From assembly GCA_903898185.1 (NCBI GenBank), contig CAIUEN010000184.1:1-34197 (forward strand): 34,197 bases of DNA, written 5' to 3'. A program made the translations under genes and the position numbers. How positions within the stretch are numbered: position 1 is the stretch's first letter; each line of letters begins with the position of its first letter. Positions 7,512 through 32,833 of this stretch are shown here, piece after piece. The stretch is from an uncultured Verrucomicrobiales bacterium (lineage in GTDB: Bacteria > Verrucomicrobiota > Verrucomicrobiia > Limisphaerales > Palsa-1400). Below the pieces are notes generated by a model. It was given only the letters and a program-made list of their open reading frames with translations. It had not been told where the DNA came from and made no database searches.

Positions 7512-8680
7512 TTGGCGTTGTCCTCGTTCAACAGCATGTTCACGTCGGTTGTGTAGGTGCTATGGAGTTCCCGCTCGAGGTCACGATAGAAGCCCCTGAT
7601 TTTCTTCCATTTGACTATTGCCATGATGGCATTCAGAGCGTTCAAGTCCGCGACTTGAATGTTGGACGAATAGATGTCCTTCTCACCGCCACCCGCGAAG
7701 GAAATCTGTCCCGAGTGAACGTGGTCTCGTTGTCCTGGAATGCTTGCTGTAACCCTCAATATTCCGCCGAGCGTTCCATCCACCAGCTCCAATCCCATTC
7801 CGGTGTCCACAAATGGCACGTTGAGCTCCTCAAGTCGCTTGACCACCAGCCTCTTGCTTTCCCCTCCGTCAATGCAGATGAAGGCGAACGTCACGCCGTC
7901 GAGGAGATTGATGTTTGCTGGGGCAATGGCGACTGAATGAGCCACGATGTTGCGGTGCATTTTGGCGTAGATGCCTTTCAAGTAGTCGACCTTTTTTGGG
8001 GCTACCCGCAATTCTTCCAGCGATGGCGCCCCCGGTGCCCGGAACGCATTGTGTTGAAGGAACTCGTCGCCGTCAAATAGATGAATCTCGCGGGCGGGCG
8101 TTTTCGCGACGAAGTCCAGGACGTAGGATCCTGTGCCCCCAAGCCCGATTATCGCGACCGTTTCGTTCTGCAGCCGAGCTGTTAATTCACCAATTCCGAC
8201 GCGATCAGACGCGGTTTCGATGTAATTAAAAACGCTGGCTTCATCTGCCTCCGGCACGCGAAACGTACGAGCTGTTACCCCCGGCTTGAGAACGCTTGCC
8301 GGTCCCGAAAGGATCGCCACATACGTTGTCATCTTGTGGTAATAGTTGTCGTAACGTCCCGATGGCGGTCTGCTTGAAAAGGCGCACTTTGAGGTACCCA
8401 TTGGAACATTGCCACTTGGGTGCGCAATTTGAGAGATTCGGGTTCCATCCGCGTTGCAAGGGAAGTCTCCGTCGAATCCGCAAACGTGGTCGTCAGGCTG
8501 TCTGGTGATATTGCTGGCCATATTCAGACTGGAAATCAATGTTCCAGTGCGCACCTGGTTTTGGGAGTCCACATAGGGAACATCCCGCATCAGAAGCAAT
8601 CCTCCAACGATTTGCACGAAATACCCTTCCTCGCGGAGTCGTTTGAGGTCGGGACTAAGATTGAACGGTTCCTGTGACAT
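7508..8680 (-). CDS. ThiF/E1-like adenylyltransferase with extra N-terminal domain (possibly E2-like)
   Basis: ETVAIIGLGGTGSYVLDFVAKTPAREIHLFDGDEFLQHNAFR is the ThiF/E1 Rossmann nucleotide-binding segment; ~150 aa N-terminal domain (CGFDGDFPCNADGT...SKCAFSSRPPSGRYDNYYHKMTTYVAIL). Confidence 0.87.
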   Translation of the reverse strand: MSQEPFNLSPDLKRLREEGYFVQIVGGLLLMRDVPYVDSQNQVRTGTLISSLNMASNITRQPDDHVCGFDGDFPCNADGTRISQIAHPSGNVPMGTSKCAFSSRPPSGRYDNYYHKMTTYVAILSGPASVLKPGVTARTFRVPEADEASVFNYIETASDRVGIGELTARLQNETVAIIGLGGTGSYVLDFVAKTPAREIHLFDGDEFLQHNAFRAPGAPSLEELRVAPKKVDYLKGIYAKMHRNIVAHSVAIAPANINLLDGVTFAFICIDGGESKRLVVKRLEELNVPFVDTGMGLELVDGTLGGILRVTASIPGQRDHVHSGQISFAGGGEKDIYSSNIQVADLNALNAIMAIVKWKKIRGFYRDLERELHSTYTTDVNMLLNEDNAK

Positions 8681-9404
8681 TGAAAATGGTTCCTTCCTTT
8701 TTGACGGTTACTACTCCTCCGGCGCTAAGGGGCCCCGACGACGGCTTCGAAGCGGCATGAGTATAGGTGCAGGAGTAAGTCATGTTCGCTGGACGGGGAC
8801 CAGGAAACGCAAGTTGGACCACTTGTTCGTAGGTCACGTGCTCATCTTCCACGGTTCGCTCGCGGCCGTTGACCGTAATCACGTAATTCGTTTTGGGTTT
8901 CGGGCCGACGATGAAGCGTTCAACTCCGGAAGCCGTCAAATCGACCTGTTCTTCGGTTTCGATTAGCCGGTCCTGGCCACCACGCACCTCCAAAAACACG
9001 GCTTCGCCTTGACCTGGTTTGGCCAATTCGTAAAGCACGGAGCCAGCGATGCTCGGTTTGCCCCACTCGACTTGGTGATTTTTGACGGTCAGCTTGAAGG
9101 TGCGGTCCGTCTGGAATACGATGAACCGTTCGACCTCACGACCTCGCAGATCGAACGTCTCGTCGAGACGAACGTCTTCGAAATCCCCGTTGGGGAGAAT
9201 CGCGAAAAGGCTGAAGTCTCCATCGGGGTCAAGACCAGCACTGGTCAGGATTTGTCGTCCCAACGGCACTGGGTCGGTTACGTGTAGGTTTTTGAAGCTC
9301 AGGTCTCCCTGTGCGATTTGGATTCGGTAATTGCGGGCCGAACGTAAAGCACGTCCAGCGCGCACTGCTTCTCCAACATCTTCGATTTCAATAATATCGG
9401 TCAT
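8655..9404 (-). CDS. poly-ubiquitin-like (multiubiquitin-domain) protein
   Basis: From MTDIIEIEDVGEAV... (start 9404, internal to the 9554 ORF): three successive Ubl-like units (YRIQIAQGDLSFKNLHV..., FKLTVKNHQVEWGKPSIAG..., YVITVNGRERTVEDEHVTYEQVVQLAF...). 3' end overlaps the E1-like gene by 26 bp. Confidence 0.85.
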   Translation of the reverse strand: MTDIIEIEDVGEAVRAGRALRSARNYRIQIAQGDLSFKNLHVTDPVPLGRQILTSAGLDPDGDFSLFAILPNGDFEDVRLDETFDLRGREVERFIVFQTDRTFKLTVKNHQVEWGKPSIAGSVLYELAKPGQGEAVFLEVRGGQDRLIETEEQVDLTASGVERFIVGPKPKTNYVITVNGRERTVEDEHVTYEQVVQLAFPGPRPANMTYSCTYTHAASKPSSGPLSAGGVVTVKKEGTIFNVTGTVQS

Positions 9405-9450
9405 AGTTATTAACTTTCTGTTCAGCGGGGTTATTCCCGCTTTCACACGG

Positions 9451-12400
9451 TTAATCGCTACGACTAGGGGCGACCGGTAAAATTTTGTAGAATTTTTTGC
9501 GCAGGGGGCCTGATGGGGTCGGGCCACACACAAAAAAGCCTGGGCACTTGGCACAAGCGTGTGCCGATGGGGCGTAAGGGAAATGCCCGGAGCGTATCGA
9601 CTTCAGGTAATCCAGGAGTTTGTCCTGTCGGTTACTCAGCTTCTTGGGTGATAGGGTGACGGGTTCCACGGTCTCGTCAGCTAGGTAGACCAGCTCCACC
9701 ACCGCGCCTGGAAACGCTCTTTGGACGGCCGTCAAGAATACCGCTGTTCCAATATCATCTTGTTCATCGGAAGGCTTATGCCCAGTCCTGATACTTCGTA
9801 GAATTCGTTTGCCGTTAGAATCGATCAATACGTCGTCGGCCTGAACGATCATCTCGTCTTGACCGACGCTTAGGTTCAGTGAAGTGGGGCTCGCCACGGC
9901 CCGCCCACTTCGGTTTGAGATGAAGAATTGGAGCATTTTCGTCGCCAATGCCCGGTAGTCTGTTTCATACCCGTGGGTGGCCAAGCCTGTTTCCTCAAAC
10001 GCTTTCGTGATTCCTCGGTCCAGGTCTTCCTTTGTGCCTAACAGAATTTCTCCGGCGACGACGCCTTTCACCACGTACCGAACGGCCTCGTGCATTTGCA
10101 TGAACGCTGTTTCCGTTCGCCGTCCACCAACTTCCAGTATATGGGTGTATAAGAAACGACGGGGGCATTTTTCATAAAGAGCCATTTTGTGGCCCTCGAT
10201 GCTTATTTTCCCATCGACTGCTAGCTCGATCCGGTCATCCTCGGAGTCCTTTTGAGCTGGCAGTTGGGGTGTGACCTGTGATTTTGCCAGATGTGATTCA
10301 ATGGCCTTTACGAACGGCGAAATTGGTCGATTCGCTCCATTGGATTTCGTGGTGGGAGCATACAGCATCAATCGGTCTTTGGCCCTCGACAAGGCGACAT
10401 AGAATAGGCATTCCTGCTCCGCCTCATCTCCGGCCCGTAAAGCGTCCTCTACGCTTCCTTCGGCTCCCTCCACCATTCCATCGGGCGGTGGGCAAGCAGG
10501 TTGCCGCGAGGGTTTGGGGATTGTGCCCGCATTAAGCCCTGGCAGATGCACCACTGGAAATTCCAGCCCCTTGGCGCCGTGAATTGTCATCAGGCGAACT
10601 GCGTCGATGCTTTGCGCGCACGCCGGCAACTGACGCAAATCGCGTTCGTCACCCAACCGTACCAGTCTGCGGACCCTGTCCATAAGGCGAACAATTCGGC
10701 GATCACCAGTGGGTTGGGTTTTGACGAAGTTCATCAATTGCCAAATTGCTATCCCCTTCGCTCGATCAGCAACTTGGGTCCCATTTGATACTTTGGTCGC
10801 CATTCGTGTTCTATCGAGGAGAATGCGCGCCAATGTTTCCCAGGGTTTCGAGCATTGGTCGAAATCGCGTAGCGTTCCTGCTAACTTGTCCAAGGCATCT
10901 CTCCCTTGCGGGGTTACGTTATCCAGCTTCCTTTGGCCTTGAAGCCATTGCTCGGCAGATATCTGGTGTTCACGCAGATGTTCCAACACGACCGAGACGT
11001 CTGCGATGGACATCTCGAAATCGGGCAGACAGGCAATTCGTATCAATCCCATCGCTCTTCGGTCCGTAAGCAGGTTCAGGAAGGCGAAAAGGTCCTTTAC
11101 CTCAGGACGCTCAAAGAGACTCCCGAGGAACAGCACCGGCACGCCCAATCCTTCAAGGTCGTGGGCGATTTCCGACAACTTTTCATTCCCGGTGCATAGC
11201 ACGGCTTGGTCGCGGTATTTGTAACCGGCCAGGTACATGTCCTTGATCGATTCCGCGAGTATTTCCGATTGCTGATCCGCGCTCGCGAAGGTTCGAAATA
11301 GCGGGCGGTGACCACTTGGTCCCCGGGAGGCCTCTAATGAGCTGTCTTCGTCTCCGACCTTCATTCCCACAGCGAAGGACGAAAAAGTTCTCACGATTTC
11401 ATCAACAGAACGATAATTAAGCTTCAACCTCCCACGCTCGCCACCTGTGAAATCAGTGCGTCCAAACCGGTTAATGTTGTATGACGACGCGCCACGGAAT
11501 CGGTAAATCGACTGTTGAATGTTTCCAACCACCCAGATGTTGTTGTTTTCCGAGTGGAGGGCTTTCAGCAGGCGCACACTGCTCCGGTTGACGTCTTGGT
11601 ACTCGTCGACCAGAACGTGGTCATATTTCGTTTGCAGGTGTGCTCGCACCTCGGTGTTCCCTTCGAGGAGCAGAACTGGGAGAAGCACCAAGTCTCCGAA
11701 ATCGACGCACTCCTTTTTTCGTTTGAGTGCTTCGTAGATGGCATAGACCTTGGCGACTTCGCAGGCCCGTTGCGCGCATTCGACTTGCTCTTCCGAGACT
11801 GCGCTCTTGAGCATTTGTTCGGCGAGTTCGGCGTATCGTTTCGCATCGACAACTTCGTCTTTCGCGCGGGAGATTCCCGCAAGAATGTTCACGATGTTGT
11901 TGGTGGGGTCGTGAATGTTCCGGTAGTGACGCAGGTCAAGCCTGGCGAATTCCTCCTCCAGCATCTCGACTGCCTCAGTGCGCTCGAGCAAACGTGGTTC
12001 CTTCGGCAACCCTAGATCCGTGTGGAATCGCCGGATTATGTCTAAGCCAAAGCTGTGGAAGGTGCCAATCCACATCGCGCTCGCTTCTTGTTTCCGCTTT
12101 CTCGCGATTCGTTCTGCCATCTCGCCGGTGGCCTTGTTAGAGAACGTCAAAACCAGAATACGGCGGGGGTCAACGCCATCGTTGAGTAATTTTTCGACTC
12201 TCGCCGTTAAAGTTTTTGTCTTGCCGGTACCGGGGCCTGCTTCGAGCAGATATGCCTCTCCGGAGTATTCCACGGCTTCGGTTTGAAGTGAATTCAGCGG
12301 GCGGTCAGGCTTCAACTCAGCTTCTTTTTCATCTTCGGCTGGAGGCAGTAGGAGCGCATCCAGTAGCTGTTGTGCTACCACATCAAACGGGACTACCAGT

Positions 12401-12888
12401 TTGCTCGCGATATCCGAAGCTGTCATCCCTTGTTCCACATGCAAATGCCAAGCAACTGTTCTCGGCAACAGGAATTCGCGTGCAAAGAGATCCATCTGGA
12501 CCTCGCGTCGCTGGCGTTGGCTGTAATCGACCACCCGATCCATGCCGATGGGTGATGGCTCCGAAGCTCGGGCTGGGTCGATTTCCCATATGGGCTCGCT
12601 CCCCGTGTCATCCCCCAGTGATGCGTGGCCGAGCTCGTGTGCCACCAGAAATGCACGTTCGAACTCACTGCCAGCGTCTTCGTGGAGGATTAGCCTGTCT
12701 TCGGGTTTAAAGGTCGCGCGACTGCCATTGAGCGTTGACGCTCCTTTTAACACGACTTCAACGTCGATTTCCTGTCGTTTTGCTTCTGCCAGAGCGAACT
12801 CGTACGGCTTCCACGGATCCGCCCCCCTGGCAACGGCCTCACAGTGAAGTTTGCTGGCGGTTTGCCGAGCGAGTTCAATCGCATCCAT
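9451..12888 (-). CDS. ImmA/IrrE-like metallopeptidase - UvrD/Rep SF1 helicase - Cas4/AddB-like Fe-S domain fusion
   Basis: 1145 aa. Peptidase: LVAHELGHASLGDD and QMDLFAREFLLPR. Helicase: GPGTGKT, VDEYQDVN, MTIHGAKGLEFP, LFYVALSRAKDRL. C-terminus: YEKCPRRF ... CAKCPGFFVC (C...C-x2-C-x5-C). Confidence 0.92.
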   Translation of the reverse strand: MDAIELARQTASKLHCEAVARGADPWKPYEFALAEAKRQEIDVEVVLKGASTLNGSRATFKPEDRLILHEDAGSEFERAFLVAHELGHASLGDDTGSEPIWEIDPARASEPSPIGMDRVVDYSQRQRREVQMDLFAREFLLPRTVAWHLHVEQGMTASDIASKLVVPFDVVAQQLLDALLLPPAEDEKEAELKPDRPLNSLQTEAVEYSGEAYLLEAGPGTGKTKTLTARVEKLLNDGVDPRRILVLTFSNKATGEMAERIARKRKQEASAMWIGTFHSFGLDIIRRFHTDLGLPKEPRLLERTEAVEMLEEEFARLDLRHYRNIHDPTNNIVNILAGISRAKDEVVDAKRYAELAEQMLKSAVSEEQVECAQRACEVAKVYAIYEALKRKKECVDFGDLVLLPVLLLEGNTEVRAHLQTKYDHVLVDEYQDVNRSSVRLLKALHSENNNIWVVGNIQQSIYRFRGASSYNINRFGRTDFTGGERGRLKLNYRSVDEIVRTFSSFAVGMKVGDEDSSLEASRGPSGHRPLFRTFASADQQSEILAESIKDMYLAGYKYRDQAVLCTGNEKLSEIAHDLEGLGVPVLFLGSLFERPEVKDLFAFLNLLTDRRAMGLIRIACLPDFEMSIADVSVVLEHLREHQISAEQWLQGQRKLDNVTPQGRDALDKLAGTLRDFDQCSKPWETLARILLDRTRMATKVSNGTQVADRAKGIAIWQLMNFVKTQPTGDRRIVRLMDRVRRLVRLGDERDLRQLPACAQSIDAVRLMTIHGAKGLEFPVVHLPGLNAGTIPKPSRQPACPPPDGMVEGAEGSVEDALRAGDEAEQECLFYVALSRAKDRLMLYAPTTKSNGANRPISPFVKAIESHLAKSQVTPQLPAQKDSEDDRIELAVDGKISIEGHKMALYEKCPRRFLYTHILEVGGRRTETAFMQMHEAVRYVVKGVVAGEILLGTKEDLDRGITKAFEETGLATHGYETDYRALATKMLQFFISNRSGRAVASPTSLNLSVGQDEMIVQADDVLIDSNGKRILRSIRTGHKPSDEQDDIGTAVFLTAVQRAFPGAVVELVYLADETVEPVTLSPKKLSNRQDKLLDYLKSIRSGHFPYAPSAHACAKCPGFFVCGPTPSGPLRKKFYKILPVAPSRSD

Positions 12889-12889
12889 A

Positions 12890-13468
12890 TCATTCCCTCG
12901 ACATCAATTTGGCTCGCTGATCTTCTGGGATTCGGGCTTCGATCAAGAGCTGTTCAAAGCTCACTGGCTCGCTTTCTTGTGGTTTTCCGTCTGCCTTGTA
13001 GCTTACCGCAACCGTGCCACTCGGGGACGCGCTTAAATACTCCCGCAGAACGTCGATCTTGGTGTGTAACGCGGTCGCCAACCGGGCAAGAAACGGTTGA
13101 GGCACAGAACTTTCGATCACCTTGTGATCTCGGAATGCGCTCAAGATGCCCCTTGTGATTCCAAGCGCACTGGCGATCTCACGGAGCGCAGAGGTCGTCA
13201 GCGACGCAAAAGGGTTTACTCGAGCGGGCTTCATGGCTTTTTGATACTGGTTCCACGCACCCTTAATCAGTTCCTTATCGTGGTCAGACAGGGGACCCGA
13301 GTATTCCGTCTGGGGTTTGGACAATTCCTGCCAGAGGTCCTTCAAATCACTCGCTAGATCAGGGTAGTTCTTGCAGTAATCCGCGAGCGTTTCAGCGTTT
13401 AGTGTCGCCTCTACTGCAAACGCATCTAGTACGTCTTCCCGCGAAGGATTGGACATGTTCTCTTTCAT
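12890..13468 (-). CDS. HTH (XRE-like) regulator
   Basis: 192 aa; helix-turn-helix-like TTSALREIASALGITRGILSAFRDHKVIESSVPQPFLARLATAL; ATGA overlap with the upstream gene; next to the ImmA/IrrE-domain gene. Confidence 0.6.
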   Translation of the reverse strand: MKENMSNPSREDVLDAFAVEATLNAETLADYCKNYPDLASDLKDLWQELSKPQTEYSGPLSDHDKELIKGAWNQYQKAMKPARVNPFASLTTSALREIASALGITRGILSAFRDHKVIESSVPQPFLARLATALHTKIDVLREYLSASPSGTVAVSYKADGKPQESEPVSFEQLLIEARIPEDQRAKLMSRE

Positions 13469-14301
13469 AGTGGTTTGTTCCCCGTCAACTTTTCTTTGAG
13501 CGCTTGGAAGGCTTGATCTCGGTGTGACCGAATTGTCTTTTCCGACTTCCCAAGCGCTTTTGCAATCGTCACGGCATTCGGATCCTGTGAATCAATCGGA
13601 ATACCATTCAGCCACATTTCGATTATCTTTTTTTGGTTGTCCGGTAATGTGTTAATCGCCCCAGGCAACTGAGACCGGTAATATTCGTTGTCGATTTTTG
13701 CAGGATCGAACGGATCGACGCTCCCGCATGCTTCTTCCACCTCCGCCGATATTTCGCCGTTTCCGCCCTCGTTTTCGAGCGGTACGGATTGATTCTCCTC
13801 CTTCCAGGCTTTTTCACTGGCTGTTAACCGTAGTCGCCTCAGAGCCATGTTGAATTTGATCTCGAAGAAGTCCAGTTTCTCATCGTATTCAGATTCGTCT
13901 TTTGCCACCAACTCGGCAAAGCGACCAAAAACAGAGTCCCGAATTTGTTCATCTGTCAGGAAGACTCCTTCCCCACCGTAGTTCTCGTTGGCTGGCAGAT
14001 TGCGGAGAACACGCTCCATCAACATCGCGTGGAGCTTTTCCCTGTGCTCGATTGAAGCAGTCCCTTTGTTGTTGCGCACCAAATAGAGCAGACATTCGCT
14101 TGGAACATAATTGAGATCCTTCGTGTCCACGATGGCACAAACCTCCAAAACCTGCTGAGATTCAAGAGCCAAGAGCTGGACGATTTTCGCCTCGATTTTC
14201 TTGTCCCTGAGGTAGGTTTGGCTCTGAGGGTTCTTTTTCCTCAGAGGTCGTGCTTTCAGCGTGTTTTTCCCGTCCGCGACATTTCCGGCGTGTGTGCTCA
14301 T
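13465..14301 (-). CDS. RNA polymerase sigma-70-like factor
   Basis: 278 aa; C-terminal region-4-like segment LPDNQKKIIEMWLNGIPIDSQDPNAVTIAKALGKSEKTIRSHRDQAFQALKEKL. Confidence 0.65.
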   Translation of the reverse strand: MSTHAGNVADGKNTLKARPLRKKNPQSQTYLRDKKIEAKIVQLLALESQQVLEVCAIVDTKDLNYVPSECLLYLVRNNKGTASIEHREKLHAMLMERVLRNLPANENYGGEGVFLTDEQIRDSVFGRFAELVAKDESEYDEKLDFFEIKFNMALRRLRLTASEKAWKEENQSVPLENEGGNGEISAEVEEACGSVDPFDPAKIDNEYYRSQLPGAINTLPDNQKKIIEMWLNGIPIDSQDPNAVTIAKALGKSEKTIRSHRDQAFQALKEKLTGNKPL

Positions 14302-14513: not shown

Positions 14514-16562
14514 TTATTGAGCAGACTGAACGAGGTAAGACACTTCGAAGGCCTTGGTTAATCGCTCTTCCTGAACGCAAGTGGCCAGAGAAAACGGGCT
14601 GATCTCGTAGCGCTGGAAGATGTCCAAGCCACGGTCAAGGCTGATCTTCCAGCCCGTGTCGGTTGTAATACTCCGAGCGTGGAAGCCATCGGTGTTATCG
14701 TAGCTATATTCCAGACTTACACGCGAACCTGCGCACGACTCCTGAATCTTGCGCAGGTTATCTTCCTGTTCCACACATCGATCGGGATCACTTTTCGTCA
14801 ATACAACAACCTTGGTTTCCTCTCCCTCCGGCGTGAGCTCATGAATTAACTGCATGAATTCCATGAGGTTGCGGATTTGCCAGAAGGCTCGAATATACGG
14901 GTCTTGGACTGAAATCTGGCGGGCACCGCGAAGGTGAGCGGCGAAGAGTCGGCGAAATCCATAGCCCTTGCTGTTTTCCGGTACCACCAAGTGACCAGGC
15001 TTTGCCTTAACGCTGTCTTTCACCGTCGCGAATGGCGCGTCATGCTGATCGAGAGGCAATTCTTCTGATTGCTGTGGAGCTGTGGTTCGGTCATGGCGAA
15101 CAAGCGTTGGATACTGCTTTGCTTCGAGCGTTGTGACCTCTGTCTCCTTGTTCGATTCCAAATCGGTATAGCTGAACGTGACAGATGCAAACGTCTCATC
15201 GATTTTGAGAATCTGCTCCTTCACCCGGCGACGTCCCTCGAGCGCGAACGCCAAGATCTCTTCGGCTTCTTGTTTGGTGCTATTTTGATTGGGAAACAAG
15301 ACTTTCATCAGCCCGGAGAAGGTCTTTTGAACCCCATCGCGGTCGCGAGTCGTGATCTCGGAGTTGAGCGTGAAATGCTTTTGGTAGGCGTGAGAGAAAT
15401 CCTGATTGCGCAAGTGCCGAAGCACTTCTGCGAGGTAATCAACAATGAAGCCAAAGCCAGACGTAAAAAGCTCGGATCGCAAGGGGCTGGTCTCCCATCC
15501 CGCGTTGTAAAAATGAATGCGATCCAAAAAAGCAGGATCGATGTATTTATCCGGGAGCTCGTCGAAGAAGTTCGAGTGCTTCATCATATAGGGGACCGAC
15601 TTCCGGGTGTTCCCCATGAAAACCATGGAAGCTTCGGCGCCGAGCATTTCGATCCCTCGTGAAAAGCTCTTATTCGCCATGTAGTTCTTCATGATATCGA
15701 CAAGGTTTTTGTCGACCTTCTTGTCCTTGCCCGCGAATTCGTCGAAGCAAACACAATCCCAGTAACCCACGAGCCCAATCTTGCCACTGGCATTATTAAC
15801 GAAAAGCTTGGCGACCGTGATCTCGCCACCGGAGATGAGGATTCCGTGTGGTGAAAACTCGGAATAAATGTGCGATTTGCCCGTTCCTTTTGGGCCAAGC
15901 TCTATGAGGTTGTAATTCCGCTCACAGAATGGGATAAGGCGAACGAGCAGGAGGAGCTTTCCGCGACGGGAAAACATTTCTGGATTGAATCCCATGCTTT
16001 GGAGCAGAACATCCATCCATTCTTCCGTGGAAAACTCCTTGCGCGCGGTCAAAAACTGATCGACATCCACATGGGCAACTTGGATCGGTTTCAGGCTTTC
16101 CAGATGCCATGGTTCCTGCTTCACCTCTTCGACCGGCTGGTAGCTCAGCTCGGCAATACACCAAACACCCCCAACCAAGAGCTTTGGATGCTTCTTGATG
16201 TAATCTGAATCGACCTGCACCTTCCTCAAACCTAGATTTGTGAACTGGGCCTCATAGACGCCAGCCTTGTCATTGAGTTCCACTGTGACTTTGTCGATGA
16301 CCTTGTGGCGCCCTTTTTCCTTAATGGTCGACTTGATCAGTTCACTTTCGTTCCGGTGAACGAAATGTTTGGTAAGGATGTTTTTGACCGTTTCGATTCC
16401 GCTTTGGATCGAGGCTTCATCGTCTGTGGCGCAGTGCTGTCCAAGCAGGTATTCCAGCACGTAACTCGGAACGATGGCATTGCCTTTGATGGTCTTGGTC
16501 AGGTCCTTGTGAACGACCAGACCTGCAAAATACTTGTTAATCTTTTGGTCAAGTGACGTCAT
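14514..16562 (-). CDS. brxL: BREX AAA+ ATPase BrxL, variant with MIT_C/PLD-like C-terminus
   Basis: 682 aa; BrxL N-terminal/AAA+ region (LGQHCATDDEASIQSGIETVKNIL, LIELGPKGTGKSHIYSEFSPHGILISGGEITVAKLF, GYWDCVCFDEFAG, IMKNYMANKSFSRG). C-terminal ~150 aa reads ISVQDPYIRAFWQIRNLMEF...GFHARSITTDTGWKISLDRGLDIFQ. Confidence 0.92.
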   Translation of the reverse strand: MTSLDQKINKYFAGLVVHKDLTKTIKGNAIVPSYVLEYLLGQHCATDDEASIQSGIETVKNILTKHFVHRNESELIKSTIKEKGRHKVIDKVTVELNDKAGVYEAQFTNLGLRKVQVDSDYIKKHPKLLVGGVWCIAELSYQPVEEVKQEPWHLESLKPIQVAHVDVDQFLTARKEFSTEEWMDVLLQSMGFNPEMFSRRGKLLLLVRLIPFCERNYNLIELGPKGTGKSHIYSEFSPHGILISGGEITVAKLFVNNASGKIGLVGYWDCVCFDEFAGKDKKVDKNLVDIMKNYMANKSFSRGIEMLGAEASMVFMGNTRKSVPYMMKHSNFFDELPDKYIDPAFLDRIHFYNAGWETSPLRSELFTSGFGFIVDYLAEVLRHLRNQDFSHAYQKHFTLNSEITTRDRDGVQKTFSGLMKVLFPNQNSTKQEAEEILAFALEGRRRVKEQILKIDETFASVTFSYTDLESNKETEVTTLEAKQYPTLVRHDRTTAPQQSEELPLDQHDAPFATVKDSVKAKPGHLVVPENSKGYGFRRLFAAHLRGARQISVQDPYIRAFWQIRNLMEFMQLIHELTPEGEETKVVVLTKSDPDRCVEQEDNLRKIQESCAGSRVSLEYSYDNTDGFHARSITTDTGWKISLDRGLDIFQRYEISPFSLATCVQEERLTKAFEVSYLVQSAQ

Positions 16563-16577
16563 GTCATGTCCTCGTCA

Positions 16578-19094
16578 TTAAATATCGTCAAAATCGCTGT
16601 CGAAAGCCCTGCGCAGCTTGAAGGTGAATTCAAGATAGGTTGAGCACTGAGCTGTGCCTGGAATCAGCTCTTCAAGGCGCAAAAAAACTTCATGGCCGTT
16701 GAATTGGTCGGCCTCGCGACCAAAGACAAACTGTTCTCGACGCTCACGTTGGCGGGCGTCTTCCGCTTTGGAATCGAATTTGAGCGTTTTAGATTCGCTA
16801 ATGGGAATGCCCGTTCGAGAAACGAAGCAGGCTCGCAATTCACGCGGCAGGCACTTCTCCCCAACCGGCTCATTTTGCAGAAATGTAATCGTAACCTGGC
16901 CGGTGGTAATCTGTTGCCCACTGCGAACAATATCCACATCGACCCGGCCAACATCGCTGGTTCGCTCTTTCTTCACTTCAATCACCGGCAGAACGATCTC
17001 TTGGAGGGACGCGCCACCATGAACGAACCGGCTTCCGGAGCCTTTAAGACGCAACCGCTGTATCCCCTTTGGAATCGCAATTTTGAGATTACCGCCTAAT
17101 CCAAGTTCAGTCGCAGCAAACAGTCTCAAGCTCGGATCGTCTGATATTTCCGGTCCGACAATGAACCGGCGCTGATAATGGAGAGCCCCTGGCGGCTCAG
17201 CAATGGCCAGAAAATCACTTTCGGCAACCGGTTCGTGTTGGTAAATAAAGCCGTGGTCAGTAGTTACGATGAAGTGGCTGACGTTCATCGCCGCCGCCTT
17301 TTTTAAGAGTCGAACAACATCTTCGATGGCATCTTCAACCGCCGAGCAGGTCTTGTGCTCGGTGTCTCGTTTGTCGCCGATGGCATCAATGACGTCGTGA
17401 TAAACGAACACTACGTCATTAGAGCGCGCGAGTTCACGCCCATCGGTTTTGGAATTAAGGGCAAGAAAATCCTCAGCTGAAATGGCGGCTCCTTTGCCTT
17501 CGAAGTGTGTAGCGAGAATTTCGCCGCGAGATGTGGTTCCCGCCGTACTAATTCCGTCTGCGAGAACAACCTTGCCGTTAGGCGCGAATTCCAACACCCG
17601 ATGCGGTAACAGAGCTGCCATGCCGAGCTGCGTGTAAGAAGGCAACAGACCAAGAACAGGGCTGATTTCAGCCGTCCAACGATCTTCCCGCAAAATACGT
17701 TCCAGCAAGGCGCGTCCCGCTTCGAAGCGGAGCGCGTCGGAGACGATGACAAAAACTTTCTTCCCTTCCGAAAGGCGAGGCTGCACAAAACGAGAAATCA
17801 GGCTACGTTGGCTAGGGATTTCAGTACTGGCCCATTGAGGACAACGATCCATCCACTCCTGCCAACGTTGAGCCAACTTGCTCAAAAACTCGTTCACGTA
17901 AAGGCCTTCAACGCGGGATGCCAATTGTTCCAGGACGGCTGTCTGCGCCGATTCCGTGACGTGGAAGATAAAGTGTCGGTAGAGCTGATCAATGCGCCAC
18001 CAAGTAGAGGCATATTTGGTTAAACCTGCATCGAAAGACTCGATCGAGAGGTCTAATCTGGGCAAGGCTTCCAAGAACTCAGCCGCAACTGACAAGGCCC
18101 GGTAAAGCGAACGGATGCCCTTGTCGTGGCGCGCCCAATGAAGTTGCGAGCGGGTCTCGGCGCGTTGCCGCACTTCTGCTGGCGTGAGGGTGCCTTTGAC
18201 CAGTCCATCCCTCAAATCTGCCAGAATCCTGAAATCAATGCGGCGATAAGTTTCGTGTGTGAGCAGCGGCCGTACATCATCAACTTGATCAAGAGCGCCT
18301 TTAACGTTGAGCATGGTCTCGGCACGTTCCGACAAAGCTTCAAAGGTTGCCCGATACTCCTCGCTATCCTTCCAACGGTTCAGAAAGACCAGCGCCTGGC
18401 GTGGATCGAGCGTTGAACTGGCACCCAGTGGAGTAACCGCCCGGAACAAGCACAACACAAAATCCAGCAGGGATGGCGAGGGATTGACGTAACCAAAGTG
18501 CGTCGTCAGGTGTTTCCACAATGCCTTATAAAGACCGAATTTCTCCAACTGCACCCAGCGCTCGCTTTTGTTGCGAGCTAACTCACCGAGAAGGGTGAGC
18601 AGAATTGCATCAACCGTTGGTTCGGTTCGGCAGGCCACCGCTATCATTTTAGATCGAACCGTGGATTCGGTGTCGTCGGATTTGAGCCACTCTTTAAGTT
18701 TAGCAACCCGTTCGGCGTTGCGGAAAAACTCAAGATGCTGGGCTGTGAGGGTCTTGAACTCCGGCGGGAGACCAGCATCGATCAGGGCAAGCGAGGCCCG
18801 GTCGGGTGAAAAAGGCGGCCCATAGGCAAGCAACTGGTCCAGCAACCAGTTTTGGTTATCGGGGGGCTGGTGTTGACCACGGAAATAGAGCAGAAATTTT
18901 TGCAGTGGTTCGTCGCGTGCGATGCGGTGTTTCACCCCAAACTCATTATTTTGGACGGAAATTTTGACCACCTCCGGCAATTGAAGAGCGTCGAATTCCT
19001 GCTGCCAACCTGCGAGATCAGCATCATACCAAAAGACAATACGCTTCCGGGCGAATTCTTTTTCAAGGGCGCTTTGTATTTTTGCGGTGCTCAC
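16578..19094 (-). CDS. pglZ: BREX phosphatase-like protein PglZ (type A)
   Basis: 838 aa; alkaline-phosphatase-superfamily motifs VFVIVSDALRFEAGRALLERI, LLPSYTQLGMAALLPH, FIVTTDHGFIYQH. Confidence 0.92.
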   Translation of the reverse strand: MSTAKIQSALEKEFARKRIVFWYDADLAGWQQEFDALQLPEVVKISVQNNEFGVKHRIARDEPLQKFLLYFRGQHQPPDNQNWLLDQLLAYGPPFSPDRASLALIDAGLPPEFKTLTAQHLEFFRNAERVAKLKEWLKSDDTESTVRSKMIAVACRTEPTVDAILLTLLGELARNKSERWVQLEKFGLYKALWKHLTTHFGYVNPSPSLLDFVLCLFRAVTPLGASSTLDPRQALVFLNRWKDSEEYRATFEALSERAETMLNVKGALDQVDDVRPLLTHETYRRIDFRILADLRDGLVKGTLTPAEVRQRAETRSQLHWARHDKGIRSLYRALSVAAEFLEALPRLDLSIESFDAGLTKYASTWWRIDQLYRHFIFHVTESAQTAVLEQLASRVEGLYVNEFLSKLAQRWQEWMDRCPQWASTEIPSQRSLISRFVQPRLSEGKKVFVIVSDALRFEAGRALLERILREDRWTAEISPVLGLLPSYTQLGMAALLPHRVLEFAPNGKVVLADGISTAGTTSRGEILATHFEGKGAAISAEDFLALNSKTDGRELARSNDVVFVYHDVIDAIGDKRDTEHKTCSAVEDAIEDVVRLLKKAAAMNVSHFIVTTDHGFIYQHEPVAESDFLAIAEPPGALHYQRRFIVGPEISDDPSLRLFAATELGLGGNLKIAIPKGIQRLRLKGSGSRFVHGGASLQEIVLPVIEVKKERTSDVGRVDVDIVRSGQQITTGQVTITFLQNEPVGEKCLPRELRACFVSRTGIPISESKTLKFDSKAEDARQRERREQFVFGREADQFNGHEVFLRLEELIPGTAQCSTYLEFTFKLRRAFDSDFDDI

Positions 19095-19115: not shown

Positions 19116-21812
19116 TTAGGTTAGAATGCGAGTCGTTTGTGATCCGGAAGCGACGATGCCGAGCAATTCCAGTTCCGGCTGTCGGAACGGGATATCCAGG
19201 GAAGGAAGCGCTCGCCTCAATAAGGTCTCAGCTTGGATCAATATCTCTTTGTCTCCTGGTGGGAGCTCATTTGGAGCGGTTTCGATATCAGCAGGGAACT
19301 TGATCGTGGATGAAATCGTGTTCAGGGATTGGAGAACTTGCCAGTCTTTGAGAAGCTGAAAGCCTTGTGCATCGTGAGCGACCCCCAGAACAATCGACTT
19401 TGGTTGAGCCGGGTTCCCAGTAACCCGATCATAGCTACGAAAAACCAGCAACAAGCCCGCTTCGGGGGTCATCGGTTGCGAAGCATAAGCTTCGGGCAAA
19501 AGGCAGGCTTGTTCCAAAGCTGTATCAAATAGCCGACTCCCAATTCCAAGAAGGGTCCCCTTTTTATGCGAAGCCGATTTTCGGTTGAAATGCACATCTT
19601 CATAGCGAGCTCTCAATCCGGGTGTTTTCTGCCATGAATCTGGGGTCTTGAAGGCCAACTGCCCCTCAATTTCAGTCACTTGGCGACGATTGTGGCGCAT
19701 AGAGAGCCGGAAGAATGGTGCCAAATCGGGTAGATCAAGCTTGGGGACTTTGTCCGAAACCTGTGCGAAATCGAAATGCTGAGCGTGCCCGAGCAGGTCC
19801 TGAACCACCCGAACCGCATCCTCTCCACCCATTTGCCCCGTTTGTTCGTTAAACCAGTCTTCTAGTTTTGCGCGCGGAACTTGGTCGGCTGTGGCGAAAA
19901 CCGCATCGAGCATGCCGGGGCGGGCAATACCAAGAACCAGCTGATGCAGATCTTCCGGTTCCTCGGCAACGGCGTTAATGGAGCGCCTAATTCGTTCCAA
20001 TTTCTCATTTAAGAGCGTCCAGATGCGAGATTCAACAGTATCAGGGTTCTGAAAAAGCATCACTTTGACCACCTCTTGCTGGCCAATGCGATTGAGGCGC
20101 CCGACGCGTTGATGGAGACGCATGGGATTCCACGGGAGATCGACATGGATCAACCGCGAACAGCGTTCTTGAAGATCAATGCCCTCACCAGCCGCTTCCG
20201 TCGAGACCAGAAAGCGAACCTTGCCCGAATTGAAGCGGTCTTTGGCAGACTGTCTCGACTCACGAAGTGCTTTCAGAGTGCCGGTCGGAGTGACTACGCT
20301 CGGGAGAGCTTCATCACCGTTGATGAAAGAGGCGCTATTGTCTCCAAAGTTTTGCCAGAGTGCAGCCAAGAGTACAGCCTGCGTCACCTTGTATTCCGTG
20401 AAAAACAGCACGGACTCCCCAGGCGGCAGTTGGCGCACACGAGTGATAATGGCTTCGATCTTGGTCTCGACGGTGACTTTATCAGCGGTTGCGATGAGTT
20501 CGGCCAAACGCGCGCACTCGTTATTCATCAATTCGAGATAAAGCGTGACGATCTCGTTCTCAACAATCGGGTTGATCGCGTCAGGATCGTCACCGTAGCG
20601 GGCCAGACGTTTGGCGGCATCCTCGGCAGGCGGCAATTTACCCTGTATTTTGGCGGCAAGATCAGTAAGCTTCTTTAGACGTTTCTGCAATGCACTCCGA
20701 ACTGCTGCCACCGAGCTAGACGCCAGCTTTTGTAGCGCAATCAACACCAGCATGACGGTACGGCCCCGATCTCCTTGCAAGCCCGATGCGTATGCTTGGC
20801 CAGAGGCGATGAACTCCGTCATCGTCTTATAAAAGATGTCTTCTTCTGAATTGTAACGGTAAGGAACGGTTGTGGTCTGTGGCTCTTTAAACAGGCGTTC
20901 GCCTCGAAGATTGGTAACGTGATACTTGTTGTTTCTGACCAAAGCTTCTGGCAGTCGTGCCAATTGAGGTTCGACTGGCTTGCGGGGATCGAACAAGTCG
21001 GGACGAACCAAAGACATAAGTGCCAGAAAGCCGAAGTGCTTGCCGCGGTGAGGTGTCCCGGTAAAAAACAGCAACGATCGAAGCCGATCTGCCTCCTGCA
21101 ATTTCTTGATCAAGCGGTGCGCTAGAGTCATGCCGGACGCCTCATCGACGTTAAGGTGATGCGCTTCATCGACAATGATCAGGTCCCAAGGATCTGTTTG
21201 GAGCATGCGATCATGGCGCCCATCCTTATCCTCTCGCAATGTGTGAAAAGACGCGACTACGTTGGTGTTGAGCTTCCAGAAATCCAAACGGCCAGAGTCC
21301 TGATCAGGAAGGTATGCGGCCGTGCGTATATCGAACATTTCAAAAAGCCTCTTTTGCCACTGCTCAACTAAAGAGGCAGGACAAAGAATAAGAAGACGAT
21401 GAATTAGACCCAGATGAAACAGACGCCAAAGAATCAGCCCTGCTTCGATTGTCTTGCCCAAACCAACATCGTCGGCAACGACCCATCGCACCGGCCATCG
21501 TTCCGTAACCTTTCGACATACCCAAAGTTGATGTGGATACAAATCGATTCGACTCGGCGAAAAGACGCCCCAACTGTCATTGACGGCGCGAATGGTTTCT
21601 CCAAGTAGGCGGAGCACCACCGGCGAAGCGTGAGCCGGTTGGCCCTGGAGGTAAGCATCAGCAGCCGACCGTAAAAACGTCAACTCACGGGTCAGACATT
21701 CCTCAATTCCGCGCGAGAAGCGCACCAGCGTCGTGTCGCCTTTCGAGTATTCGACAACGCCACGACCAAAGGTCGAATGATTAACAGGGGAGCCTGGAAT
21801 TAGTGGGTTCAT
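19116..21812 (-). CDS. SNF2/RapA-like DEAH helicase (BrxHII/DrmD-like)
   Basis: 898 aa; VADDVGLGKTIEAGLILWRL, IIVDEAHHLN, FFTGTPHRGK, STEAAGEGIDLQ, LHQRVGRLNRIGQ. Confidence 0.92.
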   Translation of the reverse strand: MNPLIPGSPVNHSTFGRGVVEYSKGDTTLVRFSRGIEECLTRELTFLRSAADAYLQGQPAHASPVVLRLLGETIRAVNDSWGVFSPSRIDLYPHQLWVCRKVTERWPVRWVVADDVGLGKTIEAGLILWRLFHLGLIHRLLILCPASLVEQWQKRLFEMFDIRTAAYLPDQDSGRLDFWKLNTNVVASFHTLREDKDGRHDRMLQTDPWDLIIVDEAHHLNVDEASGMTLAHRLIKKLQEADRLRSLLFFTGTPHRGKHFGFLALMSLVRPDLFDPRKPVEPQLARLPEALVRNNKYHVTNLRGERLFKEPQTTTVPYRYNSEEDIFYKTMTEFIASGQAYASGLQGDRGRTVMLVLIALQKLASSSVAAVRSALQKRLKKLTDLAAKIQGKLPPAEDAAKRLARYGDDPDAINPIVENEIVTLYLELMNNECARLAELIATADKVTVETKIEAIITRVRQLPPGESVLFFTEYKVTQAVLLAALWQNFGDNSASFINGDEALPSVVTPTGTLKALRESRQSAKDRFNSGKVRFLVSTEAAGEGIDLQERCSRLIHVDLPWNPMRLHQRVGRLNRIGQQEVVKVMLFQNPDTVESRIWTLLNEKLERIRRSINAVAEEPEDLHQLVLGIARPGMLDAVFATADQVPRAKLEDWFNEQTGQMGGEDAVRVVQDLLGHAQHFDFAQVSDKVPKLDLPDLAPFFRLSMRHNRRQVTEIEGQLAFKTPDSWQKTPGLRARYEDVHFNRKSASHKKGTLLGIGSRLFDTALEQACLLPEAYASQPMTPEAGLLLVFRSYDRVTGNPAQPKSIVLGVAHDAQGFQLLKDWQVLQSLNTISSTIKFPADIETAPNELPPGDKEILIQAETLLRRALPSLDIPFRQPELELLGIVASGSQTTRILT

Positions 21813-21817
21813 GCGAT

Positions 21818-29305: not shown

Positions 29306-32300
29306 CTAGTCCTCTTCCTGCTTTTCTAATCCCGGTATTGGAACTACCGCGCCTTTGAATTTGAGGTAGTTCACCTTTACGCCGTCATCGAGGTCCAGTT
29401 CGATGCGTTGCTGGGCCAGGGGCAACAGGACGTCACGTTCCCAGGATTTGATTTCTTTAAGCATCTTATCGATTTTTCCGAGGTCTTTGGTGGCTTTGGT
29501 GCGGTCGGCGGGACGAGCGGCTTCGTTGAGTGTAATGGATGTGAGCTGTCGGTGCTTTTCCTCCAGCTTGCCGATGAACTCGCGCACGTAGTCGTTGAGC
29601 AATAGGTGTATGGTGTCACGGGTGTATCGGTGCAGGTAGATAAGCGCCTGGAAACTGCTTTCGGGACTGCTGAACATCCAATAGATGGGGCGCTTCTTGT
29701 AGGTCCTGAGATGCTCCTTATAGAAATCCCCAGCGAGGAACGTCCGAAGATCCGCTGGCTTGGCCTTGCCAGTTTTGGCGTCCACCTTGCCAAGCGCGGT
29801 TTCGATAAAGGCGATGTTCTCGGCCAGGTTGTCCTCTCCGAATGTCACGCGAAGAAATTCGCGCAAACGCCCCACAACATCGTCAGGGAACCAATCGCCG
29901 TCGAGCACGGGTAGAATGCCATCCGCATCGGGTTCAAAACTCGGCTTGGGCACTTTGGCGAGGTAATCCTGCACGGTTGCACCGGCGTCGGCTAGGATGA
30001 CGCCGGGGGCATCGAGCGAATAGCGACCGAACATGCAACCGAGGGCGTACGAGATGAACGCGACCATGTCCTTGCGGATATCGGCACGAGCGAGCGTGAT
30101 TTGATCTTCGGGCACTTCCGGTTCGAGCTCGTCCTGCAAACCGTAGGCACAAATGAACAGCCGGTTGTTCTCCGTCTCTAATTCTTGCATCCGGTGGATG
30201 GCGTCCTCGCAGTTTGTTTTCCAATTCAGCCAACTGTCCGCCAGAGTCGTGCTTTTTAAGCCGGAACGGAGCAAAGGCAGGTAGCGAAAATCCCACGAAG
30301 TCTCGCAGTTGTCCCAGTCTGCTCGCGCGATGCAAATCGCTGATTCGGCAATTGCGCCTGCACGCCGTTCACTCTTTTCCGGCAAATGCGTGTCCCAAGG
30401 AATGTCTGCGATGTTACCGGCTTGGAAATTCAGTGTAGGATTAAGGGCTTTCAGAAAATGCCATGTTACCGAAGAACACAGCAGACTGAGAATTGGATAT
30501 GTTTTCGCTCCGGGGAAGACGGACGAACCGCCCACGTCAAACAAGAATCCAGGGTCTGAGTATCGAATACCAAAAGCGCTCGAACTAACGAACGTCCATG
30601 TAAGTCCTGGTTTGCAGTAGAATTCTGTGTTGATGATTCGACGAGACCAATGCGTTGTCTTGGGGTCTTTCGGATTGTGCAAAAGCCAGTGCTTAATCTC
30701 TGCGCCGTCATTCTCCCAGTTCACCACAAGTTCTGCATTTCCGAACCATTTACGAAATTCACCACCTTTGTTGTATGGAAACCATTTGCGACCGCTTTGG
30801 ACAGTTGCCTCCAAGGACTCACACTTGAATCCTATTCGGTCGAGCGATACTTCAAACCACTTTCTTACGAATCGCGCGTTATCATTGGTGGACATTCCTT
30901 GGCGTGGTTTCGCTACTGATCCAACCGAGGAAAGCTTTTCAAACGCCGTGAAGCTTGAAGGTTTCAGCCAATATGCGATGGGGCTCCCGGGAATGCGACG
31001 AAAGTCGGCTGAGACAGCCCTGTAACTAGGGAAGGCGCGGGAGGAGAGTCGTTCTTCAAGCTCTTCGTTCGAAGCAACATCGCCTTGTCGTGTGAACAAA
31101 CGTTTGTAGTAACCTGCCTCCGTCGGTCGCATCCCCTTTTTAATTACGTAGGAGCAACTGCCGAAATCCGATCCCCAAACACCGCGTCCATTATGGACGA
31201 GGCTCGAAATACCCGCCTCTTTTAGCAAAAAAGAGCGCAGCTTTTCGAATGTGCTTAGGAACATCCAATTGGGGATGCTGATCATTGCGACATAGGCATG
31301 GATGGGAATGAAATCCAAATTGCGGACCATGAAAGCGCCGTAAGCATCTGCTTTTCCGGCTTCCAAATTTTCTATAACGAACTGCTTCAAACTTTCGTTG
31401 AAGAACTTCGTGCCCATATACGGCGGATTAGCCACGACGACATGATACCGCTGACAGAGATATTCAGCTTGTTCTAACACGCAGAGGACTTTGGTATGCG
31501 TGTCGCGTAGGAACAGCAGACTGCCGAGGTCTATGGTCTCGATGACATCTCGAGCAGACGCGATACCCTTTTCGTCGAGGCATGGCTGGATAAGAGATCC
31601 ATAATTTTCCGCTTCCTCAAACTGGTGCAGAAGATTGCCCAGTTCCGGGTGGATGGCTGAGGGTTGAATGCGAAGTGCCTCGAAGTAGGCAGATAATTCG
31701 CCGTCTGCAAAACGAATATCTTGTAATGAAATGAAATGGGGCTGGACCGCCCGTCTGAAGAACCGGTTATCTTTTGCACGGGCCTTCATGCAAAGCGCAA
31801 ATGCGGCTAGCGCCACGGCGCGATCGCAAATATCCACCCCATAAAGGTTATGGCGTAGGATTAGACCGGGGATTTCAGGCGCGTCGTAGCCTTCCTCTTC
31901 GTAAATAGCGTAAAGAAGGTCGAATGCATAGGTCAGCATATGGCCACTACCACCGGCTGGATCAAGCAGGCGAATTTCTTCCGGCTTGGTAATTCTCAGG
32001 AAATCAGTTTCCGCTTCGCCTTCAATGTAGTAAGGCATTTTCTCGCGTAACTTGGATTGTGGACGATTCAGAAGCCAGAGGCGCCCCAGCGAGTTCTCAA
32101 CCAAGTAACGAACAATCCAATGGGGAGTGAAAAGCTGGGTCACAGCGGGAATATCCTGCTTGGGCACGGCGGCATTCCGTCCCATTACCTCGTCTTTTTT
32201 CTCCGAGATATAGTATTGGTAGAGCCATCCGAGAACTTCCTCGTTCTGACAGTCCTCGTCGGTGAGGCCTGCCCGGAAATCGGCCACAATCGAATGTTCG

Positions 32301-32833
32301 GTGAGCAGGTCGTCTGGGAGGAGCAGTTCCGTGGCATCTCCAATTCTCTCGAAGAGAAACGGCATGAGCCGGTGGTAGTAATTACACGCGGCCACCAGTA
32401 GCAGTTTGAAAGCCTGTGCTTCCGGGTGATCCACAGGAATACGCCCTGCAAGTAACTCATCGAAGGTGGCTGGATTGGCAATGCTGGCGCGAAGATCCGT
32501 ATCGAGCGCTCCGGCGCGGGCTTGTTGCAGAACTTCCGGCAGGGTCTCATTGGCCGTGGCGGGCGTAATCACACGAGCGCCAAACGGATGATAGCCATTC
32601 GCGTCCATGAATCGGAGCGCGGCAAGGCGGTTAAACCATGTGTAAGCGACGCGCTCAACTAACGGATCTCGTCCTCCCGTTTCCAGAGCCTTGCGCAACT
32701 CGGCGACTTGGGTGGCTTGCTGGCGCAGTTCCGCTGTATCAGCCGTGAGGACAAAATCCAGCCGTGCGCCAATGAGTTGGCGGAGTTTATTCCGGAATTC
32801 CTGGGCGAATGTTTTTAAAGCAGATTGGTTCAC
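29306..32833 (-). CDS. pglX: BREX adenine-specific DNA methyltransferase PglX
   Basis: 1175 aa; PglX N-terminus (VERVAYTWFNRLAALRFMDANGY), DPAGGSGHML and VVANPPYMGTKFF methyltransferase motifs. Confidence 0.95.
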   Translation of the reverse strand: MNQSALKTFAQEFRNKLRQLIGARLDFVLTADTAELRQQATQVAELRKALETGGRDPLVERVAYTWFNRLAALRFMDANGYHPFGARVITPATANETLPEVLQQARAGALDTDLRASIANPATFDELLAGRIPVDHPEAQAFKLLLVAACNYYHRLMPFLFERIGDATELLLPDDLLTEHSIVADFRAGLTDEDCQNEEVLGWLYQYYISEKKDEVMGRNAAVPKQDIPAVTQLFTPHWIVRYLVENSLGRLWLLNRPQSKLREKMPYYIEGEAETDFLRITKPEEIRLLDPAGGSGHMLTYAFDLLYAIYEEEGYDAPEIPGLILRHNLYGVDICDRAVALAAFALCMKARAKDNRFFRRAVQPHFISLQDIRFADGELSAYFEALRIQPSAIHPELGNLLHQFEEAENYGSLIQPCLDEKGIASARDVIETIDLGSLLFLRDTHTKVLCVLEQAEYLCQRYHVVVANPPYMGTKFFNESLKQFVIENLEAGKADAYGAFMVRNLDFIPIHAYVAMISIPNWMFLSTFEKLRSFLLKEAGISSLVHNGRGVWGSDFGSCSYVIKKGMRPTEAGYYKRLFTRQGDVASNEELEERLSSRAFPSYRAVSADFRRIPGSPIAYWLKPSSFTAFEKLSSVGSVAKPRQGMSTNDNARFVRKWFEVSLDRIGFKCESLEATVQSGRKWFPYNKGGEFRKWFGNAELVVNWENDGAEIKHWLLHNPKDPKTTHWSRRIINTEFYCKPGLTWTFVSSSAFGIRYSDPGFLFDVGGSSVFPGAKTYPILSLLCSSVTWHFLKALNPTLNFQAGNIADIPWDTHLPEKSERRAGAIAESAICIARADWDNCETSWDFRYLPLLRSGLKSTTLADSWLNWKTNCEDAIHRMQELETENNRLFICAYGLQDELEPEVPEDQITLARADIRKDMVAFISYALGCMFGRYSLDAPGVILADAGATVQDYLAKVPKPSFEPDADGILPVLDGDWFPDDVVGRLREFLRVTFGEDNLAENIAFIETALGKVDAKTGKAKPADLRTFLAGDFYKEHLRTYKKRPIYWMFSSPESSFQALIYLHRYTRDTIHLLLNDYVREFIGKLEEKHRQLTSITLNEAARPADRTKATKDLGKIDKMLKEIKSWERDVLLPLAQQRIELDLDDGVKVNYLKFKGAVVPIPGLEKQEED

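What the first reader, a model, noticed from the sequence alone, without database searches (positions are those of the whole stretch)
14514..14990. BrxL variant: Lon peptidase domain apparently replaced by a MITD1-like (MIT_C/PLD-like) domain
After the AAA+ region the C-terminus reads ISVQDPYIRAFWQIRNLMEFMQLI...VVVLTKSD...GFHARSITTDTGWKISLDRGLDIFQRYE, matching the MIT_C pattern of eukaryotic MITD1 (DPYI..hQ..N...F; D.GW.I...RGLD.F). No Lon S16 GPSAG-like Ser/Lys motif is visible. MITD1's domain binds membranes, which raises a possible membrane or lipid role for this BrxL.
Basis: partly seen in the sequence, partly recalled or inferred. Interest (0 to 1): 0.78.

Follow-up and report, generated by a model that had tools for sequence, protein, structure and literature searches.

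The report
BrxL with PLD-fold (MITD1-like) tail
A bacterial anti-phage (BREX) protein has a tail related to a human cell-division protein and to nuclease-type folds instead of the usual Lon-like tail; this tail swap is real but is already a widespread, published variant, and it points to DNA attack rather than to membranes.

Summary
The 682-aa BrxL at 14514-16562 (-) has BrxL_N, the BrxL AAA+ domain, and at residues 533-677 a MIT_C domain (PF16565, E 4.6e-35), with no Lon_C match. A second BrxL in the same genome does match Lon_C (E 1e-15), so the absence is meaningful. A confident AlphaFold2 model of the domain (pLDDT 94) matches MITD1 (TM 0.88), then Zucchini/PLD6 and other phospholipase-D-fold proteins. 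It is not new. All 80 closest relatives carry it in type 1 BREX loci, PADLOC has a separate full-length model, and Rakesh & Krishnan (2026) report 1030 of 2913 type 1 BrxLs with Lon replaced by a C-terminal 'HKD-endoDNase' bearing an HRD motif, which is H628-R630-D635 here. No evidence supports a membrane role. The likeliest function is a DNA-directed, probably nucleolytic, effector on a DNA-loaded ring, but catalysis is unproven: Lys is always Arg, the Asp is replaced in about 9% of sequences, and MITD1 also keeps the His and Arg. New details: a second, divergent MIT_C-BrxL lineage lies closer to human MITD1 than to this one; brxC here is interrupted by a MITE-like element; a sacsin-like/SNF2 pair sits between pglX and pglZ.

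The parts
14514..16562 (-). brxL, 682 aa, MIT_C-type
   Evidence: TIGR02688 6.7e-186; PADLOC PDLC02508 over 1-679, 1027 bits
16140..16535 (-). BrxL_N domain, residues 10-141
   Evidence: PF20442 3.5e-49
15174..16109 (-). BrxL AAA+ ATPase domain, residues 152-463
   Evidence: PF13337 1.1e-128
14532..14966 (-). MIT_C / PLD-fold domain, residues 533-677, in place of the Lon-like domain
   Evidence: PF16565 4.6e-35, 8.1e-36 in six-frame search; AF2 model pLDDT 94; Foldseek MITD1 TM 0.88, then Zucchini
14658..14681 (-). HxRxxxxD motif (H628, R630, D635), counterpart of the HKD motif
   Evidence: H and R invariant in 62 of 62, D in 56 of 62; weak profile alignment to PLDc_2 puts H on H, R on K, D on D
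16578..19094 (-). pglZ, type A, directly upstream of brxL
   Evidence: TIGR02687 1e-208; adjacent to MIT_C brxL in nearly all relatives whose contig reaches it
29306..32833 (-). pglX (brxX), BREX type 1 methyltransferase
   Evidence: NF033452 1289.7 bits
32830..33939 (-). 3' part of brxC (model positions 819-1171), cut off from its 5' part by a repeat element

Best explanation
This is a type 1 BREX BrxL of the known MIT_C/PLD-fold ('BrxL-HKD') kind. The N-terminal and AAA+ domains load as an ATP-dependent ring on DNA, as shown for canonical BrxL. The C-terminal domain, in place of the inactive Lon-like domain, brings a single-copy PLD-fold module with an HxR(x4)D motif to that DNA. As in other single-motif PLD-fold nucleases, two copies would have to pair to form one active site. 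Because the Lon-like tail pairs the two rings tail to tail, a self-pairing PLD-fold tail could replace it and place a phosphodiesterase at the ring junction, adding DNA cutting to PglZ nicking. Shown here: domain identity, replacement of Lon_C, fold, motif conservation, BREX context. From the literature: ring loading and the Lon-tail role. Inferred: pairing and catalysis.
For: Domain identity and fold. Lon absent here but detectable in the sister BrxL; every near-full-length BrxL sampled has one tail or the other and never both. H628 and R630 invariant in 62 of 62, D635 in 56 of 62. After MITD1 the nearest solved fold is Zucchini/PLD6, a single-motif PLD-fold nuclease (its nuclease activity is general knowledge). 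Without being forced, the profile alignment to ordinary PLDc_2 proteins sets H628/R630/D635 on HKD (low significance). DNA-loaded ring and ring-pairing role of the canonical tail: PMC10164562. Independent published reading as HKD-endoDNase with an HRD motif: PMC12839542.
Against: No activity has been measured here or in the papers that could be read. HKD Lys is Arg throughout; the Asp is N, S or G in 6 of 62; and MITD1, for which I know of no enzymatic activity, keeps the same His and Arg, so their conservation may be structural. E568, K639 and D643, conserved in this lineage, are missing from the second lineage and from MITD1. The profile alignment to PLDc_2 is weak (P 0.03). No dimer could be modelled.
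Confidence: 0.5

Rival explanations
1. The MIT_C tail is a non-catalytic assembly or DNA-phosphate-binding module that replaces the equally inactive Lon-like tail, for example by pairing rings; restriction is done by PglZ and other parts.
For: The Lon-like tail is itself catalytically dead and only pairs rings (PMC10164562). The two tails are mutually exclusive. H and R are retained in MITD1, and Asp and Lys are not strictly kept.
Against: Very strong conservation of H, R, W, D647 and other polar residues and PLD-superfamily fold matches are more than a plain dimerisation domain needs.
Confidence: 0.35
2. One reading: the MIT_C domain binds membrane lipids and takes this BrxL to the membrane.
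For: Homology to MITD1, whose PLD fold binds membranes according to the title of Hadders et al. 2012 (cited in PMC9477494).
Against: Net acidic domain in all 62 sequences, no transmembrane-like stretch, no MIT domain, BREX and DNA context throughout.
Confidence: 0.06
3. Chance motif match or assembly chimera: the C-terminus is not really MIT_C or not really fused to BrxL.
For: The source is a 535-contig draft genome.
Against: E 4.6e-35; the same fusion at 58-65% identity in 80 of 80 relatives, in plasmids and in viral-labelled contigs.
Confidence: 0.01

Closest known systems
BrxL-HKD variants of type 1 BREX (Rakesh & Krishnan 2026, PMC12839542; PADLOC model PDLC02508)
   Same: BrxL N-terminus and AAA+ domain with the Lon-like tail replaced by a PLD-fold domain bearing an H-R-D motif, in a type 1 BREX locus with PglZ type A
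   Different: Nothing in the protein itself. The locus differs by a sacsin-like/SNF2 pair between pglX and pglZ and an interrupted brxC. That the published set is the same as MIT_C is inferred from the matching motif and position; the paper's main text does not use the name MITD1 and its alignment files were not readable.
Canonical BrxL (8emc, Acinetobacter; Lon-like tail)
   Same: N-terminal and AAA+ domains, E 9e-143 over residues 3-477
   Different: C-terminal domain unrelated; no Lon_C match here
Human MITD1 C-terminal domain (4a5z, 2ymb)
   Same: Same fold (TM 0.88, 28% identity); DPYIR, HxR and GW...RGLD signatures
   Different: MITD1 has an N-terminal MIT domain and no ATPase; it has N, M, G and R where this BrxL has D635, K639, D643 and E568
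Zucchini / PLD6 and other PLD-superfamily proteins
   Same: PLD fold, HxK/HxR motif region
   Different: Low sequence similarity; Lys to Arg; not an endonuclease by any test made here

Membership tests
BrxL (type 1 BREX) | BrxL_N plus BrxL AAA+ domain | tested here: met
   PF20442 and PF13337, TIGR02688 over its cut-off
BrxL (type 1 BREX) | Located in a locus with brxA, brxB, brxC, pglX and pglZ | tested here: met
   pglX, pglZ and 3' brxC in the window; brxA, brxB and 5' brxC on contig C200, joined by a 214-bp overlap at 98%
BrxL with Lon-like tail | Lon_C-like C-terminal domain | tested here: not met
   No Lon_C hit; a Lon-tail profile built here gives no hit; the control BrxL of the same genome does hit
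MIT_C (PF16565) | Full-length profile match over the curated cut-off | tested here: met
   121 bits against 25, profile positions 1-141 of 142
MIT_C (PF16565) | MITD1-like PLD fold | tested here: met
   AF2 model, Foldseek E 3.1e-16, TM 0.88
HKD (PLD-superfamily) nuclease | HxK(x4)D motif | tested here: inconclusive
   HxR(x4)D: His present, Lys replaced by Arg in all, Asp in 56 of 62
HKD (PLD-superfamily) nuclease | Nuclease activity | not testable with these tools
   Needs a biochemical assay
MITD1-like membrane binding | Binds lipids | not testable with these tools
   Only indirect: net acidic domain, no transmembrane-like stretch

The most novel reading that the evidence does not exclude
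The membrane-binding domain of the eukaryotic cytokinesis protein MITD1 and the BREX BrxL tail are one domain family in which the bacterial BrxL form is the older, DNA-cutting one. MITD1 would then be a eukaryotic offshoot of an anti-phage effector domain. In support, the second BrxL lineage (L002) is markedly closer to human MITD1 (137 bits, E 3e-39) than to the BrxL tail in this window (67 bits).
Probability: 0.25. Interest if true: 0.6.

Novelty: already known. Interest (0 to 1): 0.25.

Why it matters
Public annotation still calls these proteins 'Lon protease-like BrxL', although neither tail type has a working protease site. Knowing that roughly a third or more of type 1 BrxLs carry a PLD-fold tail makes a direct test possible: does this tail cut phage DNA, and does that explain restriction in BREX systems where PglZ is not enough? 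The caveat raised here (Lys always Arg, Asp not strictly kept, His and Arg also kept in MITD1) says the published assumption of activity needs an experiment.

Tried and rejected
Chance or chimera: rejected. Weak MIT_C hits in eight or so Verrucomicrobiota proteins of 371-430 aa: the one checked is an ABC transporter, so chance. Single or double origin of the MIT_C tail: the N+ATPase trees put MIT_C BrxLs in two clades separated by Lon-tailed ones, but an AU test does not reject one clade (p 0.176), so unresolved. Profile-profile comparison with PLDc_2: correct register at the motif but P only 0.03, and the global mode failed; not used as proof. MIT_C outside BrxL in viral contigs: none found; 12 of 13 loci are shown to be BrxL (the other, L210, holds only a fragment). 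Papers on Menshen (gkaf357) and MITD1 (PMC3491508) are not held. Searches for a paper linking BrxL to MIT_C or MITD1 found none.

Full report
WHAT IS THERE. The finding covers the 3' end of an intact 682-codon ORF on the minus strand, 14514-16562. Pfam reads it as BrxL_N (10-141), BrxL AAA+ ATPase (152-463) and MIT_C (533-677, E 4.6e-35, 121 bits against a cut-off of 25), with no Lon_C. NCBIfam's BrxL model covers residues 8-455; the longer Lon-type model TIGR02653 matches only over 3-479 and falls below its cut-off. PDB chains of canonical BrxL align over 3-477 and MITD1 over 525-663.

INTERNAL CONTROL. The same genome encodes a second BrxL on contig C494. Its N-terminal and ATPase part is 51% identical, and it matches Lon_C at 9.8e-16. 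The Lon-like domain can thus be seen when present, and the window protein does not have it. In the sample collected here (96 MIT_C, 24 Lon, 5 short), every near-full-length BrxL had one tail or the other and none had both. Four of the short ones are divergent proteins without a tail. The fifth, L115, groups with MIT_C proteins but has a 57-residue tail and is probably broken or cut.

FOLD. A model of the domain from 62 relatives has mean pLDDT 94.1 and pTM 0.89. Its best PDB matches are MITD1 (E 3.1e-16, TM 0.88, 1.9 A), then mouse Zucchini/PLD6 (2.3e-5), bacterial phosphatidylserine synthase and other PLD-superfamily members.

ACTIVE-SITE QUESTION. The domain has HxR(x4)D: H628, R630, D635. 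Over 62 domains that include the divergent lineage, H and R are invariant, D is present in 56 (N 4, S 1, G 1), and W638, R644, D647 and Q650 are invariant. In a larger set of 81 from this lineage, H is 80 of 81, R 81 of 81 and D 74 of 81. A profile alignment to ordinary PLDc_2 proteins of related genomes, weak by score (P 0.03), nevertheless lays H628 on the HKD His, R630 on the Lys and D635 on the Asp. MITD1 keeps the His and Arg but has Asn for D635, Met for K639, Gly for D643 and Arg for E568 (alignment). The second BrxL lineage also lacks K639, D643 and E568. The conserved pair is compatible with catalysis but does not prove it, because it persists in MITD1.

HOW COMMON. All 80 best relatives in a scan of bacterial and archaeal genomes align through residue 675 or beyond, so they carry the tail, across Verrucomicrobiota, Pseudomonadota, Thermodesulfobacteriota, Chlorobiota and others. 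Where the contig reaches, they sit after pglZ in BREX loci. In less biased samples, 388 genomes of the window's phylum gave 12 MIT_C-type and 11 Lon-type BrxLs, and 369 genomes of the class around a MIT_C-bearing Aeromonas gave 7 (the centre included) and 11. Plasmid copies are annotated simply as 'BREX system Lon protease-like protein BrxL'. Twelve of 13 hits in viral-labelled contigs are also shown to be BrxL, mostly beside pglZ; the thirteenth is a fragment.

WHAT IS ALREADY KNOWN. PADLOC-DB of 2023 has two full-length BrxL models: PDLC02508 fits the MIT_C type and PDLC02506 the Lon type. Rakesh & Krishnan 2026 (PMC12839542) report that in 1030 of 2913 type 1 BREX taxa with BrxL the Lon domain is replaced by an HKD-endoDNase with Lys changed to Arg (HRD), citing an earlier report; they suggest it increases DNA damage. 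I equate that set with the MIT_C type from the same place, fold and motif; their alignments could not be read. The cryo-EM study of canonical BrxL (PMC10164562) shows ATP-dependent loading on DNA as rings, tail-to-tail pairing through the C-terminal domain, and no protease site. The main text of PMC12839542 does not mention MITD1, and no paper linking the two was found.

MECHANISM. The likeliest working is a DNA-loaded BrxL ring whose tail pairs with another tail and forms a PLD-type phosphodiesterase site that damages invading DNA alongside PglZ. Identity, replacement, fold and conservation are shown here. DNA loading and the pairing role of the other tail type are from the literature. Pairing of this tail and catalysis are inferred. 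The main rival is a non-catalytic assembly module. A membrane role is least likely: the domain is net acidic in every sequence (-1 to -11), no transmembrane-like stretch exists, and the setting is a DNA-restriction locus.

A SECOND LINEAGE. Four sampled BrxLs (L125/L002, L126/L003, L130/L004, L167) carry a divergent MIT_C tail; the three aligned here (L002-L004) are only about 25-32% identical to the window's. They lie next to PglZ proteins that score best, but below cut-off, with the BREX-6 model. The L002 tail matches human MITD1 at E 3e-39 (137 bits), about twice the bit score it has against the window's tail (67 bits; the two programs' scores are only roughly comparable). On the ATPase tree the two MIT_C groups are apart, but one origin is not rejected (AU p 0.176).

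SETTING. The genome holds the complete type 1 gene set for this locus: brxA, brxB and the 5' part of brxC on contig C200, and the rest here. brxC is interrupted at model position 819 by a roughly 230-bp element with 66-nt inverted arms that occurs in many copies in the genome, often at contig ends; C200 and the window contig share the flank and element over 214 bp at 98%. If the assembly is right, this BREX copy may be inactive in this strain, which does not affect the conclusions on the family. Between pglX and pglZ lie a 2494-aa sacsin-like protein and a DrmD-type SNF2 helicase that none of the 80 relatives shows. A sacsin-like/SNF2 pair also adjoins a BREX-2 locus (pglY, pglZ) of the same genome, and relatives of the pair occur on plasmids of Deinococcus, Trichormus (near DISARM genes) and Sphingomonas.

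VERDICT. True observation, correct domain identification, ordinary in the sense that it is an established and published BrxL variant; the membrane idea is unsupported. Interest is modest; the MITD1 kinship and the unproven catalysis are the parts worth a follow-up.

Noticed in passing
window 33900-34197 with contig C200 end (L223 10774-10925): brxC is interrupted at model position 819 by a ~230-bp element with 66-nt inverted arms that is multicopy in the genome (84 matches, many at contig ends), so this BREX copy may be inactive.
   Followed up: yes
window 19116-29302: A 2494-aa sacsin-like ATP-binding protein and a DrmD-type SNF2 helicase are inserted between pglX and pglZ; 0 of 80 relatives have them. 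A similar pair adjoins a BREX-2 locus of the same genome (L141) and relatives occur on plasmids (L211 near DISARM, L212, L213). The main text of the 2026 BREX survey does not mention sacsin.
   Followed up: partly
L002, L003, L004, L167 (contexts L214-L217): A second, divergent MIT_C-BrxL lineage with BREX-6-like PglZ; the L002 tail is much closer to human MITD1 than to the window's tail.
   Followed up: partly
L140 (contig C494) and L141 (contig C340) of the window's genome: The genome has three BREX loci: this one, a type 1 with a Lon-tailed BrxL, and a BREX-2-like one with PglY and PglZ-2.
   Followed up: partly
window 7041-9554: Multiubiquitin protein, E1-like DUF6791+ThiF protein and DUF6527 protein: a bacterial ubiquitin-like cassette downstream of the BREX genes.
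   Followed up: no
window 9451-12888: 1145-aa protein fusing an IrrE/M78 peptidase-like domain, a UvrD helicase and a PD-(D/E)XK nuclease domain.
   Followed up: no
window 12890-14301: A sigma-70 region 4-like protein (278 aa) and an unmatched 192-aa protein directly downstream of brxL.
   Followed up: no
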